51,873 bases of DNA from Gammaproteobacteria bacterium. GTDB taxonomy: Bacteria; Pseudomonadota; Gammaproteobacteria; SZUA-229. The stretch's first letter is position 1. Every line of letters begins with the position of its first letter. Under the pieces are notes generated by a model that had not been told where the DNA came from, ran no database searches, and saw nothing but the letters and a program-made list of their open reading frames with translations. Both the position numbers and the translations under genes were made by a program. Below are positions 418 through 38,735 of this stretch, in pieces. The DNA is taken from positions 1 to 51,873 of the forward strand of contig JAPHRO010000063.1 of the NCBI GenBank assembly GCA_026195895.1, read 5' to 3'.

Positions 418-3400
418 CTAATCATTTTGATCATCGGTTTTTAAACGTATACCCCGACGTTTGTGTGCTGCTTTCTTTACTGGCGCAGTTTTTGGTTTTG
501 ACGCGCTCTTATTCTCCGATGCTGCGGCTGCTTTCTTTGCTGTAGTTTTCTTTTTAGTAGCCGTTTTCTTTTTGGTAACTTTCTTTTTAACCGACTTTAC
601 TGCTGCCGGTTGAGGTTCTTCGGTATCACCGGCATGAGTCACTTTAATACCCGGTGGTTTTGCCGCAGGTTCGGGTTCTTCTGAACTGGATGTACGAGTT
701 ACTTTAATGCCGCCAGCAGGTGGTGGTGTTGAACCGCTCGGTCCAGATCCAGGCCCCTGTCCTGGTGATGAAGGACCAGAAGGCGACGGCGGTGGGCTTG
801 ATGGTGGTGATTCCGAATCTGAACCGCCTGTTATTTTTTCATAAGCCATTTTCAGCATCATAAAAAACATGCGGGCTATATAGAATAACCATGAGCCAAG
901 ATTAACAATACCGGTGTACAGGCGCATCCACAATGGTGCCTTAAATCCGGCTGCCTCAGACTCCATTTCGGCTACGTCTGTCAGTCCAGCAACAATGTAG
1001 AACTGTTTTCTAACGCTAATGCAACCAAGAGGAATAACCACAAGCGTTAGCACAGTTGCGACACCTGCGCCAAATAGCAGACTAACTGCCATGCCTTTAA
1101 AAATGAGGTCATCCAGTATCATGTATGAACCGGCCATCAGGGTTAAAGCTGTAATAAGGATGGGCCGCATACGAGCGGTACCCGCATTCATAACAGCTTC
1201 TTTTATTTCAGTACCACTGGCTACTTCATGTTTAACAAATTCAACCAGAAGAATAGAATTTCGCACGACTATACCGGCTAATGCGATAAAACCGATCATG
1301 GACGTTGCCGTAAATTCCGCATTGGCAAACCAGTGGCCAGGCACTATACCGATTAGTGTAAGCGGAATGGGCGCCATAATAAGCCCACCCAGAGTGAAGT
1401 TTTTAAATTCCCAGACAATCAGGGCATAAATCAATAGCAGTGCGGCCATAAATGCACCGCCCATGTCACGGAAGGTTTCATAGGTAACTGTCCATTCACC
1501 ACCCCATTCAAAACCGCTCTGGAAACTATCACCTGGTGGTCCAAGCAAACCCATAGGCATGCCTGTCATAGTGACACCGTCGGGGGTTTCATAGGTTTCC
1601 AATATGTCTTCAACGGCAAACATGCCGTAAATGGGAGCGCCCAGACGACCTTCCATTTCACCTGTTACATATTCAACATCGCGCAGGTCCTTGTGGTAGA
1701 CAATAGGATCTTCCACGGCTTTTACAAACTTGCCTAATTCGGCGAGCGGAATGTGCTCATTATTCACGCCAATAATTGGCATATTCCCAAGACGATTAAT
1801 CTGAGAGCGAGCACCCATAGGCGCCTGGATGACAATATATGTAGGTTCAAGCACTCGGCCCTTTTTGACATCTCCTAATTTGTAACCACCCATCACCATT
1901 GCCAGGCTTTTATTGATTGAATCAACCGAGATGCCGCGCCGTGCTGCTTTTTTCGTATCGACTTCGAAACGCCAGTATTCATAGGGCTCGGCCATGTAAT
2001 TATCGACATCGACGATACCATCGGCTTCTTCAAAAATACTGGTCATATCCAGAGCAACCTGACGTCGGGTCTCCGCATCAGGACCATAAATTTCTGTAAC
2101 AACCGTTTGTAACACTGGCGGACCTGGGGGCATTTCCACCACCTGGATTCTGGCGCTAAACTCTTCGGCTAATTCTTGCAGTAATGCTCTGGCATCTACG
2201 GCAATTTCGTGACTTTCGCGTTCGCGTTTATCTTTATCCAGCAACATAATCTGAATATCAGCCTGCCAGGGCTTCTGTCTCATGTAGTAGTGTCTGACCA
2301 TGCCATTAAAATTGAATGGCGAGGCGGTGCCCACATAGGTTTGAATTGCAATTACTTCTGGCATTTCTCGCAAAATAGCTGCCGCCTGAGTCGTCATATT
2401 AGCCGTGACAGGTAAAGCCGTACCCTCGGGCATGTTGATAACAACATTAAATTCAGATTTGTTATCAAAGGGCAGCATTTTTACGGTGACGGCTTTGGTA
2501 TAAAACATGGAGCATGCCAGGAATGTCGCACCGATTAAACTGAACAGAAAAACATAACCAACAACACTGTTAGTGCATAACGGCCGCATAATAGGCGTAT
2601 AAAAACGTCCTATGGCTTTTACCATTCTGGCTTCGCGTTTTTCCGCATTTTCCAGTGCTTTCAATTGCGGCCTTAAACGCATAGCAAACCAGGGCACAAA
2701 AATGAACGCAGCAATCAGAGACAGGAACATAGCTGCAGAACCGAGTACGGGTATTGGCCGCATATAAGGTCCCATCATACCGCTGACAAAACCCATCGCC
2801 AGTAATGCAGAAATGATAGTCAGCGTGGCAAGTATGGTTGGATTACCAACTTCGCGCACCGCATCTATTGCAATATTGGTGGTTGTTTGCCCTGCCTTTA
2901 GCCAGCGCCGGAATATATTTTCTACAACGACGGTCGCATCATCAACCAGAATACCGATGGTAAACACAAGGGCGAACAAACTAACGCGGTCGATGGTGTA
3001 GTCGATAACCCAGGCCGACCAGACAGTCATTAGAATAACCACGGGAATAACAAAAATAACCACCGAGGCTGCGCGAATACCTAGCCCAATCAAACATAAA
3101 ATACTAACAGCAATAGTCGCTTCAAATAATGCTAGCAATAGTTCATTGACTTTGTCGTTGGCTGTTTTACCGTAATTACGTGTAATGGTTGCATGCACAT
3201 TATCGGGAATCAGATGCCCTTTTAATGATTCAAGTTTATTAATTAACTGGTTGGCAACACTAACGCCATTGGTGCCAATTTTCTTGGCCACTGCAATGGT
3301 TACCGCAGGCGCATCGGCTATTTCAAGGTCGTCATCGGTAAACGCCGGACCGGTTGAAAAACTCACCAGTTGAGCAGTTTCTTCCGGGGCCTGATAAACC

Positions 3401-30390: not shown

Positions 30391-30460
30391 ATAAATCCAC
30401 CTTGCGTTTGCGCAGACCAGGTCTATTCTCTTTTAATATCAATTGCTTATTAAAAGAAAC

Positions 30461-32824
30461 ATGCCCCCTACCCCAAATAACTCCATTTTACCCGGCTACA
30501 TCGGTCGCTTCAGGATCATCAGTGAACTCGGCAAAGGCGCACAGGGTATCGTCTACCTTGCCTCCGATACACAACTCGAACGCAATGTCGCTATTAAAAC
30601 GATTCAGTTTGAAAGACCTACTGCAAAACTGAAAACGCAGTTTCTCAAAGAATCAAGAACGGTCAGCAAACTTCAGCATCCCGGTATTATTACCCTGTAT
30701 GAAGCCGATGAACATCTCGGCAAGCCATATCTCGTTTTTGAGTATGTGGATGGAATATCACTGAAAGAACATTTAATAAAAAATGGCAAACTGTCGCCCA
30801 AAGATGCCATTAATATTTTAGCGCCGGTTTTAAATGCCATCGCTTATGCGCATAAACGCGGTGTGGTTCATCGAGATTTAAGCCCGGATAATATTATGCT
30901 GACCGAGGGTAACGGCAAACCTCGATTAATGGATTTTGGTATTGCATCACTGCTCGGCAACAAATCTGACGATGGCATCTGGGGCACCTTAAAATATTTA
31001 TCGCCAGAGCAATGTGAAAACAAAGATCCCATTCCCTCTTCTGATATTTTTACCCTTGGTTTAATTTTATTTGAAATGCTCACCGGTAAACCGGCCATTG
31101 AAGTCGACAATAAATTTGCGGCAATAAATAAAATTGTAAATGAAGAAATTGTATTACCTGATAGCATCGCACCCGCTTTAAAAAACATCATAAAAAAAGC
31201 CCTGGAAAAAATGCCTGAAGCGCGTTATGCCGATGCGCTGGATATGCGCCAGGACCTGTTAAAACATTTGCATCAAATTGCACCGGATGTGTCATCAGCC
31301 GCATCGAATGAAAACAGTTCCGATAACAGCACGCTCAATTTCTTGCTGCGTCGCATGGAGCACAAAAAAGATTTTCCAACCATGTCACATCAGGTGGTGG
31401 AAATCAGTCAGAAAGCGCAGGCCGGTAATGAATTTTCAGCCAATGCTTTGTCGAACGCGATACTTAAAGATTATTCCCTTTCCACAAAGCTGTTGCGACT
31501 GGTTAACTCACCGATGTATGGACATTATGGCGGCCGTATCAGCACTATTTCGCGCGCCGTGGTTATCCTGGGGTTTGAAGAAGTGCGCAACGCAGCACTG
31601 GGATTAATATTGCTGGATCATCTGAAAGATAAAAATCAGGCAAGCTCACTGAAAGAAGCCTGCATCAGTTCAATGATGAGTGGCAGCATTGCCAACGGCC
31701 TGGCGCATAAGCTTAGACTACGCGACATGGAAGAAGCCTATGTCTGCTCCATGTTTCATAATCTTGGTAAATTATTGGCCATCTATTATTTTCCCGATGA
31801 AGCCGAAGTTATCCAGGATGTGGTTAAACACAAACAGATGAAGGAAAACCATGCGGCCGAGTCGGTGCTCGGGGTCAGCTATGAGGAAATTGGCATCGCC
31901 GTTGGCGAATCCTGGCAGTTACCCACCGAACTGATAGAAAGCATGCATACCTTGCCACCGGGTGAATTAAAAAAACCATTGAGTCAAAGTGATCTGCTGA
32001 AACACGTATCCGGTTTTTCCAATGAATATTGCGAACTTATTTCAACCACCACTGCCGAAGAAAGGCAGCAAAATTTCGAAACACTGGCATCGCGCTATAA
32101 CAACACCGTCACGATTTCGCGCGCGCAAATGGATGACATCGTCAGCAACGCCGTCAATGAAATGCAAAAATATGCCCAACTTGTTAATCTCGATTTAAAA
32201 CAAAGCACCTTGTTTAGCCGAGCCAGTTCCTGGTCATCAAAAACTGAAAATAATGCAACTGACACCAGCAACAATGATGCAATTATTTCTGAAACCAGTG
32301 CGTCGGAAGAATTATCCCGCCAGCAAAATATTCTACATGCCATTCAGGAAATTACCGATGCGATTCTGGAAGGGGCATCGCTCAATGACATCCTGGTCAT
32401 GGTGATGGAAACGATTTACAGCGGATTTGGTTTTACCCGGGTCATGTTCTGTTTTATTAACAAATCACGCACCTCGATTATCGCTCGTTTTGGCTTTGGG
32501 CGTGATGTTGAAATATTAACCCAGCGTTTTAGTATTCCATTGGGCGGCGAAAAAGATATCTTTAATCAGGCATTAACCCAGTGCAAAGATCTCGTTATAG
32601 AAGATGTCAATTCGACCGACTGTAAGGATCTGATACCTGACTGGTATCGCGATAAATACGCAAAAAATTCCATGCTCGTTTATCCTATCGTGGTAAAAAA
32701 TATACCCATGGGTATTTTGTATATCGATAGCATCACGCCCATATCCATTGGCGATGAAAGCCGGCTGAGCATGATCAAAACTTTGCGCAATCAAATTGTG
32801 CTGGCGATTCGACAAAGCACCTAG
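30461..32824 (+). CDS. Ser/Thr protein kinase fused to HDOD and GAF domains
   Basis: 787 residues from ATG 30461 (a TTG 18 bases upstream is in frame). Residues ~15-270 are a Hanks-type kinase: Gly-loop LGKGAQGIVYLA, VAIKTI lysine, HRDLSPDNI catalytic loop, DFGIA metal site and TLKYLSPEQC. Residues ~295-500 are an HDOD domain (LSTKLLRLVNSPMYG, FHNLGKLLAIYYFP). Residues ~620-785 are a GAF-like domain with IPMGILYIDS. The kinase residues appear complete, so it is probably active. HDOD domains are common in signalling, often tied to motility or c-di-GMP. No partner phosphatase is nearby. Confidence 0.92.
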   Translation: MPPTPNNSILPGYIGRFRIISELGKGAQGIVYLASDTQLERNVAIKTIQFERPTAKLKTQFLKESRTVSKLQHPGIITLYEADEHLGKPYLVFEYVDGISLKEHLIKNGKLSPKDAINILAPVLNAIAYAHKRGVVHRDLSPDNIMLTEGNGKPRLMDFGIASLLGNKSDDGIWGTLKYLSPEQCENKDPIPSSDIFTLGLILFEMLTGKPAIEVDNKFAAINKIVNEEIVLPDSIAPALKNIIKKALEKMPEARYADALDMRQDLLKHLHQIAPDVSSAASNENSSDNSTLNFLLRRMEHKKDFPTMSHQVVEISQKAQAGNEFSANALSNAILKDYSLSTKLLRLVNSPMYGHYGGRISTISRAVVILGFEEVRNAALGLILLDHLKDKNQASSLKEACISSMMSGSIANGLAHKLRLRDMEEAYVCSMFHNLGKLLAIYYFPDEAEVIQDVVKHKQMKENHAAESVLGVSYEEIGIAVGESWQLPTELIESMHTLPPGELKKPLSQSDLLKHVSGFSNEYCELISTTTAEERQQNFETLASRYNNTVTISRAQMDDIVSNAVNEMQKYAQLVNLDLKQSTLFSRASSWSSKTENNATDTSNNDAIISETSASEELSRQQNILHAIQEITDAILEGASLNDILVMVMETIYSGFGFTRVMFCFINKSRTSIIARFGFGRDVEILTQRFSIPLGGEKDIFNQALTQCKDLVIEDVNSTDCKDLIPDWYRDKYAKNSMLVYPIVVKNIPMGILYIDSITPISIGDESRLSMIKTLRNQIVLAIRQST

Positions 32825-35054: not shown

Positions 35055-35990
35055 ATGGACAATTCGAAATTCAATGTGGTTTTAAGCAACCAGATCGAAA
35101 CCGGCAAGGATCGCACCCAGGTTATAGAAAACCTTGCCAGACTATTTAAAACCTCGCCGCAGAAAATTCAGAAGCTTTTCGAAAAAGCTGAAACGGTGAT
35201 CAAGAAAGACATCCCCGAAGCACAGGCTAAAAAATTTCAACTGGCCATTCATAAAACGGGTGGTATATGCCACCTGCTAGAAGTGCCATCGGATTTTGCT
35301 GACTTACCGGATATCGCTGAACCAGTAGCAACCCGCGAAACAAAAGTTGAAATCCAGCCATTTAATAAAATCGACGTTCCCAAAGAAAATAAAAGAATTT
35401 CCCTCGGCCTGGTATATGAAAAGCCGGAATCATCGGAAAAACAGGATGCAGCAATAGCATCTGTCGACGCAGAAAATTTCTGTCCTGAATGCGGCACGAT
35501 CAGAGCGAGCGCAGACTCTGTTTGTCTACACTGTAATTATGATCCTCTGGCGAAAGAAAAAATCAATTTTAAAAAATTTATTATCCCATCCGCAGCAGTA
35601 ATTTTAATAGGTATGCTGGCTTATATTTTTGGATTGCCGTTATACAAAGAATACAGTAAAAAGGTGGCGATAAATGAAGGTCTGCTAGTTGCATTTGATG
35701 TAAAAAATAAAGTCACTGAGTTTATAGAAAAAACCAATTTCTGGCCTAACCAAAATATTGATGCCAGTCTGCCTAAAGACATCAGCAATAACATCATCGA
35801 ATCGGTCATTATCAGTGACAACGCGGTAATCACCGCAACTCTAAGAGCGTCCGTATTAAATAAAACCAATCAGACACTGATATTTACACCACGCGTTTTA
35901 AACGGTCGCGTTATATGGAATTGCCACAAGGGAAGCCTGGAAGAAAAATATCGCCCCGAACTGTGCATAGCACGCATACCTGCACAATAA
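35055..35990 (+). CDS. Zinc-ribbon, transmembrane and pilin-like domain protein
   Basis: 311 residues in three parts. Residues 1-~78 are a helical domain with a basic centre (FKTSPQKIQKLFEKAETVIKK). Residues 143-160 are a zinc ribbon with CPEC and CLHC. One TM helix spans ~175-197. The C-terminal ~110 residues resemble the globular part of type IV pilins: VKNKVTEFIEKTNFWP, then TLIFTPRVLNGRVIWNC (Cys290), then KYRPELC (Cys304), the usual disulfide loop. It lacks a prepilin peptidase site, and the TM is internal, so it should stay in the inner membrane with the pilin-like part outside. No pilus genes are nearby. Function unknown. Confidence 0.75.
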   Translation: MDNSKFNVVLSNQIETGKDRTQVIENLARLFKTSPQKIQKLFEKAETVIKKDIPEAQAKKFQLAIHKTGGICHLLEVPSDFADLPDIAEPVATRETKVEIQPFNKIDVPKENKRISLGLVYEKPESSEKQDAAIASVDAENFCPECGTIRASADSVCLHCNYDPLAKEKINFKKFIIPSAAVILIGMLAYIFGLPLYKEYSKKVAINEGLLVAFDVKNKVTEFIEKTNFWPNQNIDASLPKDISNNIIESVIISDNAVITATLRASVLNKTNQTLIFTPRVLNGRVIWNCHKGSLEEKYRPELCIARIPAQ

Positions 35991-38085: not shown

Positions 38086-38295
38086 TTATCCTGAATCTTT
38101 TTTTAGCATTTTTTCCTGTTGCTTTTGTTGCAATAGTTTATGGTGATGAGATCCCTCTCTTAGTAGTTTGACTCCACAGGCAGGACACCGTTCTTCCTGG
38201 CACGGCACGCCATCACGATGCAATGTCTTTTCACCACATTTGGAACATACGCAACAACCTCCATCACCCATTTCATGCCTGCGCTTTATCGTCAT
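38086..38295 (-). CDS. Small Cys-rich zinc-ribbon-like protein
   Basis: 69 residues. CCVCSKCGEKTLHRDG (14-29) and CQEERCPACG (32-41) form a rubredoxin-like pair of Cys knuckles, and HHH follows at 50-52. A Lys/Gln-rich helix ends the protein. GGAGA precedes ATG 38295; an inner ATG 24 bases on (MGDGG) is possible. It lies 62 bases downstream of the EncFtn-like gene on the same strand, so a shared iron or metal role is plausible. I do not recognise a named family. Confidence 0.75.
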   Translation of the reverse strand: MTIKRRHEMGDGGCCVCSKCGEKTLHRDGVPCQEERCPACGVKLLREGSHHHKLLQQKQQEKMLKKDSG

Positions 38296-38357
38296 GGCTT
38301 ATTCTCCGGGTGTTTAGGCTAGTGCATCACATCGCTTATTGTCCTGTCGGATGCTGA

Positions 38358-38645
38358 CTAATCATGCGCTATTGGCTTTTCCGTAAACAGATAATCTTTT
38401 AGCTCTTTATCCATAGTCGGATCTTTTCTTCGTATCCATTCTAAAACCATAGAAGCATGTTCTTTTTCTTCATCTCGATTATGGGCAAGTATTGCTCTTA
38501 GTTCATCATCTTTGCATGCATCAACTCTCTGGTTATACCAGTCAACAGCTTCTAACTCTTCCATTAATGAAATTATCGCTCGATGCATGTCCCGTGTTTC
38601 GTCAGTGAGTTCTTCAATAGGCTCATGGTAACCTTCATTTGACAT
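38358..38645 (-). CDS. Encapsulated-ferritin (EncFtn) homologue lacking a cargo-loading tail
   Basis: 95 residues, nearly the EncFtn core in full: HRAIISLMEELEAVDWYNQR then AILAHNRDEEKEHASMVLEW. By comparison with the Rhodospirillum rubrum protein, Glu30, Glu60 and His63 should form the intersubunit ferroxidase site. EncFtn proteins normally carry a C-terminal peptide that docks them inside an encapsulin shell; this one ends at YLFTEKPIAHD, just after the second helix. No encapsulin gene is in the window. AGGAGA precedes the ATG. Iron oxidation is likely from family knowledge, but storage must work differently, or the shell gene lies elsewhere. Confidence 0.9.
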   Translation of the reverse strand: MSNEGYHEPIEELTDETRDMHRAIISLMEELEAVDWYNQRVDACKDDELRAILAHNRDEEKEHASMVLEWIRRKDPTMDKELKDYLFTEKPIAHD

Positions 38646-38735
38646 CTTTATTCTCCTGTTTGCGTGTTATTTAACCGCTACTGATTTTCTATGTCCAAAT
38701 ATACAACTGCAGGATATTAAAGTCATTAACAAGTA

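What the first reader, a model, noticed from the sequence alone, without database searches (positions are those of the whole stretch)
38086..38645. Encapsulin-less EncFtn with a Cys-rich neighbour
The EncFtn core and its ferroxidase residues are intact, but the C-terminal cargo peptide is missing and no encapsulin gene adjoins it. Next to it is a 69-residue Cys-knuckle protein that might deliver or bind metal, or act as a redox partner. This suggests an iron-oxidising device that works outside a shell.
Basis: partly seen in the sequence, partly recalled or inferred. Interest (0 to 1): 0.55.

Follow-up and report, generated by a model that had tools for sequence, protein, structure and literature searches.

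The report
Shell-free EncFtn; zinc-ribbon neighbour incidental
This is a small iron-oxidising protein of a type best known as encapsulin cargo, here in a version that lacks the docking tail and lives in cells without any capsule gene; the small cysteine-rich gene beside it is most likely an accidental neighbour.

Summary
Window 38358-38645(-) is a 95-residue EncFtn with all ferroxidase residues and no targeting peptide; no family-1 encapsulin is found in the 99%-complete genome. It is not new: it belongs to the published 's-FLP' class (PDB 3K6C, full-length match). Of 369 genomes of the class, 84 carry a tail-less EncFtn; only 4 of these have an encapsulin, and all 4 have a second, tailed or fused, EncFtn beside it. 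So shell-free working is well supported as a class property. The Cys-protein partnership is not: no homologue lies beside any of 177 other tail-less EncFtn loci, and in the host's family of 54 genomes 16 have EncFtn, 3 the Cys protein, only the host both. Two things came out instead. At least 20 of 84 tail-less EncFtn genomes have the gene within 1 kb of DUF3501, always on the same strand, mostly inside the known aerobic rubrerythrin operon (rubrerythrin, GlpC-like Fe-S protein, DUF3501). And the tail-less form has its own C-terminal signature with a histidine (79 of 84 class loci; 0 of 21 tailed). The host has that operon on another contig, without EncFtn in it.

The parts
38358..38645 (-). 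Tail-less EncFtn (s-FLP type), 95 aa, ferroxidase residues E30, E60, H63, Y37 and entry-site E29, E32 intact; ends ...LFTEKPIAHD
38358..38393 (-). C-terminal signature YLFTEKPIAHD (with stop codon) found where cargo forms go on into the targeting-peptide tail; His94 kept in 151 of 169 distinct tail-less sequences
38646..38735 (-). Upstream region of EncFtn with a Shine-Dalgarno-like site (AGGAG) before the ATG; promoter-like matches at chance level
38296..38357 (-). 62-base gap between the two genes; no terminator-like site found in it, so co-transcription in this strain is possible
38086..38295 (-). 69-aa zinc-ribbon/rubredoxin-like protein with six invariant Cys (CxCxxC...C....CPxC) and invariant His26 and His51 (first-sequence numbering of the alignment for the latter), judged an incidental neighbour

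Best explanation
The gene encodes a short, tail-less EncFtn (s-FLP class, PDB 3K6C type) that forms a free decameric ring in the cytosol. Ferroxidase centres at subunit interfaces oxidise Fe2+ with O2 or H2O2; with no shell the ring cannot be a large iron store, so it most likely acts as an iron/peroxide detoxification catalyst whose ferric product is handed to the cytosol or to another carrier. The absence of a targeting peptide is a stable property of a widespread form with its own conserved C-terminus (KPIAH), not damage. The 69-aa zinc-ribbon protein next to it is a sporadic, unrelated gene. Shown: family, residues, missing tail, missing shell gene, class-wide pattern, lack of linkage of the small gene. 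Inferred: ring assembly (from 3K6C), ferroxidase activity (from R. rubrum EncFtn), detoxification role.
For: Full-length match to 3k6c NE0167, 95 on 95 aa, E 5e-49, described as a decamer without targeting peptide in PMC11202242 (passages). Of 10 functional positions counted, 8 are identical in 169 of 169 distinct tail-less sequences, H55 in 168, W36 in 167. Class census: 84 of 369 genomes have a tail-less EncFtn, 80 of 84 without encapsulin; all 19 encapsulin genomes have a tailed or fused EncFtn (20 such genomes; the other, G074, has a long tail without the motif). Family: 0 of 16 EncFtn genomes have encapsulin. Small gene: 0 of 177 other tail-less loci; family 16 EncFtn, 3 Cys, 1 both of 54. 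In R. rubrum the shell, not EncFtn, is reported as the store for the oxidised iron (PMC5012862, passages).
Against: No assay and no structure of this protein. The 2024 review keeps open that s-FLPs could be encapsulated through an undefined sequence. Genome-level co-occurrence of the Cys protein with EncFtn in the class is 4 of 6 against 96 of 363 (Fisher p 0.048, not corrected for kinship, and resting on a 42%-identical domain hit in G322). One Cys homologue (G290) lies next to a rubrerythrin-domain gene. Tails were split at 12 residues after seeing the distribution (0-11 against 22 or more).
Confidence: 0.75

Rival explanations
1. The tail-less EncFtn is a working part of the 'aerobic' rubrerythrin defence module (rubrerythrin, GlpC-like Fe-S oxidoreductase RFO, DUF3501): the Fe-S protein feeds or takes electrons, rubrerythrin removes peroxide, the EncFtn ring removes Fe2+. 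In the host the module is on another contig, so the partnership would act in trans. This adds partners to the best explanation rather than excluding it.
For: At least 20 of 84 class genomes with tail-less EncFtn have it within 1 kb of DUF3501, all 20 on the same strand, 17 of 20 upstream of DUF3501 (the listing was cut, so a lower bound). An RFO homologue lies on the same strand just upstream in most of these. Co-occurrence 58 of 84 against 102 of 285, odds ratio 4.0, p 9e-8, kinship not corrected. In three of the four genomes with both EncFtn kinds (G014, G196, G247) the tail-less one sits next to RFO and DUF3501 and the tailed or fused one by the encapsulin. The host has RBR-RFO-DUF3501 on contig 27.
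Against: 26 of 84 tail-less genomes have no DUF3501 match, and 38 of the 58 that do show no adjacency in the listing. In the window's genome the gene is not in the operon. On the poorly resolved tree the operon position is scattered: 17 changes against a shuffled mean of 20.1.
Confidence: 0.4
2. One reading: EncFtn plus the 69-aa Cys protein form a two-gene iron-oxidising device, the small protein delivering metal or electrons.
For: Same strand, 62-base gap, no terminator-like site between. The Cys spacing CxxCG...CPxCG resembles rubredoxin knuckles and the top Foldseek hits include rubredoxin B and nigerythrin, all non-significant. Class co-occurrence 4 of 6.
Against: 0 of 177 other tail-less loci carry it; in the Cys loci fetched from other genomes (L121-L125, L252, L254-L257) no EncFtn lies beside it; the two closest homologues (72 and 71% identical) are in genomes without EncFtn.
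Confidence: 0.07
3. The tail-less EncFtn is cargo after all, loaded through its conserved C-terminus (LFTEKPIAH) into a shell of another kind or family.
For: The C-terminus is conserved and the review lists it as a putative, uncharacterised targeting peptide.
Against: No PF04454 in 80 of 84 genomes nor in 16 of 16 of the family. Where a shell is present a separate tailed or fused EncFtn accompanies it. Family-2 search negative in the host, without a positive control.
Confidence: 0.08

Closest known systems
s-FLP class, PDB 3K6C (NE0167, Nitrosomonas europaea)
   Same: 95 aa, full-length alignment without gaps, no targeting peptide, same C-terminal ending KPIAH(D/E)
   Different: No difference found in the protein; a different organism
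R. rubrum / H. ochraceum EncFtn (FLP-TP, encapsulin cargo; 5DA5, 5N5F)
   Same: Core family and all ferroxidase residues
   Different: Lacks the long tail with the targeting peptide and the neighbouring encapsulin gene
Aerobic-type rubrerythrin cluster RBR-RFO-DUF3501 (Cardenas 2016, PMC5114695)
   Same: Tail-less EncFtn genes of other genomes sit in it; the host has it elsewhere
   Different: The paper's text has no word beginning with 'encapsul'; in the window the gene is not in the cluster
Bacterioferritin plus bacterioferritin-associated ferredoxin, and IMEF plus ferredoxin pairs
   Same: A ferritin-like protein with a small Cys protein gene nearby (literature passages)
   Different: The 69-aa protein matches no ferredoxin model and is not linked to EncFtn elsewhere

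Membership tests
EncFtn-like (PF22277, TIGR04535) | Score above the curated cut-off | tested here: met
   149.3 against 27 bits; 134.5 against 125 bits
EncFtn-like (PF22277, TIGR04535) | Ferroxidase residues E32, E62, H65, Y39 (R. rubrum numbering) | tested here: met
   E30, E60, H63, Y37 by ungapped alignment (residues named)
s-FLP class (as 3K6C) | Short EncFtn without long tail or targeting peptide | tested here: met
   ends at the same residue as NE0167; definition seen in passages
s-FLP class (as 3K6C) | Decameric ring | not testable with these tools
   reported for 3K6C
FLP-TP encapsulin cargo | C-terminal targeting peptide | tested here: not met
   tail of 0 residues; a GSL-like motif is found in 17 of 18 long forms
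FLP-TP encapsulin cargo | Family-1 encapsulin in the genome | tested here: not met
   controls rang; repeated
EncB family (NF058679) | Score above cut-off 90 bits | tested here: not met
   78.3 bits
RBR-RFO-DUF3501 operon member | Gene adjacent to RFO or DUF3501 | tested here: not met
   host operon on contig 27, EncFtn on contig 21
Rubredoxin / zinc ribbon (69-aa protein) | Significant match to a family model or fold | tested here: inconclusive
   no model above its cut-off for the window protein or two close homologues; best Foldseek E 0.31; model pLDDT 77.6

The most novel reading that the evidence does not exclude
Tail-less EncFtn is a distinct, shell-independent ring enzyme that forms the unrecognised fourth component of the aerobic rubrerythrin module (rubrerythrin, GlpC-like Fe-S oxidoreductase, DUF3501), and its conserved C-terminal histidines, on the outer rim of the ring, form a functional metal or docking site in place of the encapsulin-targeting tail.
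Probability: 0.35. Interest if true: 0.6.

Novelty: new member of a known kind. Interest (0 to 1): 0.4.

Why it matters
EncFtn proteins are usually discussed as encapsulin cargo, and the 2024 review left open whether the short form is encapsulated. The class-wide count speaks to this at the level of genomes: most tail-less EncFtn genomes have no shell gene, and where both occur the shell has its own tailed or fused EncFtn. That makes a testable case of a ferritin-superfamily ferroxidase without any storage compartment, and the rubrerythrin-operon linkage names concrete candidate partners to test.

Tried and rejected
Cys protein as partner: rejected on linkage. A shared neighbourhood of the Cys homologues was looked for and not seen; the rubrerythrin-domain gene beside the G290 copy is a single case. 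Fold search of the 69-aa model gave no significant hit. A trade-off between tail-less EncFtn and classical ferritins was tested and not found: ferritin (PF00210, E at most 1e-12) in 55 of 84 tail-less genomes and 193 of 285 others, although the host itself has none at that threshold. A mere deficit of encapsulin in tail-less genomes is not the point either: encapsulin is about as rare in them (4 of 84) as in the others (15 of 285); the evidence is that the long form tracks the shell (19 of 20 against 0 of 349) and the tail-less form does not. A careful tree did not finish; the FastTree has few columns and few supported branches, so the number of tail losses is not decided. The weak EncFtn hits of G087, G211, G265, G093 and G283 (105 genomes) were dropped as not full EncFtn, leaving 100 genomes; G002 and G027 have only a C-terminal fragment in frame and were kept as tail-less. 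From the residue counts (173 tail-less loci, 169 distinct sequences) rows starting after query position 4 were dropped, L237, L238 and L164 (cut by a run of N) by name, and the own copies and L112-L119 as duplicates. The 80 loci were the best-scoring of 583, so they are biased towards close relatives, and the 177 loci contain some duplicates (for example L096 and L192); the class figures do not depend on that choice.

Full report
What is there. Window 38358-38645 on the minus strand encodes a 95-residue EncFtn, and 38086-38295 on the same strand, 62 bases further on, a 69-residue Cys-rich protein. The first matches PF22277 and TIGR04535 above their cut-offs and aligns over its full length, without gaps, with NE0167 of Nitrosomonas europaea, PDB 3K6C. 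The ferroxidase and entry/exit-site residues named for R. rubrum EncFtn (PMC5012862, passages) are all present. Nothing follows residue 95, so there is no targeting peptide.

Is there a shell? The host genome (3.33 Mb, 84 contigs, 99.05% complete) has no PF04454 match while three control genomes ring. A family-2 shell model was also negative, but no control rang. The genome holds one EncFtn.

Is this known? Yes. A 2024 review (PMC11202242, passages only) treats 3K6C as type of a class 's-FLP', short EncFtn without targeting peptide, first classed as non-encapsulated, and leaves open whether it can be encapsulated. The window protein is a plain member.

Class-wide test. In 369 genomes of the host's class, 105 had a PF22277 match; without five with only weak matches, 100 have an EncFtn. 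I took the loci and measured what follows the core. 84 genomes have a tail-less form (0-11 further residues), 20 a long form (22 or more, or fused to the shell protein). Encapsulin occurs in 19 genomes. All 19 have a long or fused EncFtn; the twentieth long form, in G074, has no encapsulin and no recognisable motif. Of the 84 tail-less genomes only 4 have an encapsulin, and these 4 have a long or fused form as well. Encapsulin is rare in the class as a whole, so 4 of 84 is no deficit against 15 of 285; the telling point is that shell and long form go together (19 of 20 against 0 of 349) while the tail-less form lives without a shell in 80 of 84 genomes. Within the family, 16 of 54 genomes have EncFtn and none of the 16 has an encapsulin.

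The Cys-rich neighbour. Homologues are rare: 6 of 369 class genomes at E at most 0.001, the host included, and 3 of 54 in the family. In the family only the host has both genes. Among the ORFs of 177 other tail-less EncFtn loci (1.5 to 6 kb on each side where the contig allows; some loci are duplicates) none is a homologue at E 0.01. The homologues lie beside unrelated genes, such as phosphatidylserine-decarboxylase-like, radical-SAM-like, TPR and Crp-like genes (my reading of the translations); the G290 copy lies by a rubrerythrin-domain gene. Genome-level co-occurrence in the class is 4 of 6 (p 0.048, uncorrected), too weak to set against the lack of linkage. The protein has six invariant Cys and two or more invariant His in a CxCxxC...C....CPxC frame. 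Its model is of medium confidence (pLDDT 77.6) and finds no significant fold match; rubredoxin chains head the list and RNA-polymerase zinc ribbons appear in it. Whether it binds zinc or iron cannot be told.

What does travel with tail-less EncFtn. Clustering neighbours of the 177 loci brought up a GlpC-like Fe-S protein on the same strand just upstream in about 20 loci, and reading these loci shows rubrerythrin, Fe-S protein, EncFtn, DUF3501 in a row (for example L099). This is the 'aerobic-type' rubrerythrin cluster RBR-RFO-DUF3501 of Cardenas and colleagues (PMC5114695, passages), whose text holds no word beginning with 'encapsul'. A text search for papers with at least five of six terms (encapsulin, rubrerythrin, operon, DUF3501, ferritin-like, Fe-S oxidoreductase) gave three papers, none with the word encapsulin (search listing); most subscription papers are not held, so I cannot say that the linkage is unpublished. 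DUF3501 is present in 58 of 84 tail-less genomes and 102 of 285 others (not corrected for kinship). In at least 20 of the 84 the two genes lie within 1 kb, in 20 of 20 on the same strand. In the host, the operon RBR-RFO-DUF3501 is on contig 27 with no room for EncFtn between RFO and DUF3501, so the window gene is an unlinked copy.

A C-terminus of its own. Among 169 distinct tail-less sequences position 94 is His in 151, and 163 have a His in the last six residues; of 18 long forms none has. In the class sample alone it is 79 of 84 against 0 of 21 loci. The tail-less form is therefore not a decayed cargo protein but has a conserved ending (KPIAH), whose role is unknown; on the R. rubrum structure the C-termini point outward from the ring, so a rim of histidines is an inference.

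How it likely works. A free ring that oxidises Fe2+ at interface centres, with O2 or H2O2, and without a store of its own; in R. rubrum the shell is taken to be the store. In this host no classical ferritin, bacterioferritin or Dps reaches E 1e-12, only rubrerythrin-like proteins, so the ring may carry more of the Fe2+ load here; across the class there is no such trade-off.

Verdict. Observation confirmed, known class, shell-free reading strengthened by a class-wide count, Cys partnership rejected, and better candidates for the partners found in the rubrerythrin operon.

Noticed in passing
L236 (G196:C227:4300-7900), ORF 1184-2659 (-): In-frame EncFtn joined to the C-terminal half of an encapsulin (profile positions 116-252) in a bacterium of the class; published EncFtn-encapsulin fusions are said to be archaeal (passage). 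Could be an in-frame deletion or an assembly error.
   Followed up: no
L237 (G002) and L238 (G027): Only the C-terminal third of an EncFtn is in frame: broken or frameshifted tail-less genes.
   Followed up: no
L197 (G074:C20:63600-67200): EncFtn with a 32-residue Lys/Ala/Pro-rich tail without a targeting motif, in a genome without encapsulin.
   Followed up: no
L251 (G066:C35:75500-80500): RFO, DUF3501, a peroxiredoxin-like gene and tail-less EncFtn in a row on one strand; a similar peroxiredoxin-like ORF is near EncFtn in 4 of the 177 loci.
   Followed up: partly
L125 (G322:C25): A more distant relative of the 69-aa Cys domain is fused to a DUF5320-like Gly-rich N-terminus (below Pfam's cut-off) beside two genes that read like ATPases with ferredoxin motifs.
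   Followed up: no
window 30443-32824 (+): Protein kinase domain joined to an HDOD domain in one ORF.
   Followed up: no
window 35055-35990 (+): Protein with a weak ribosomal-L12-C-like N-terminus, a zinc-ribbon-like stretch and a pilin-like C-terminal domain.
   Followed up: no
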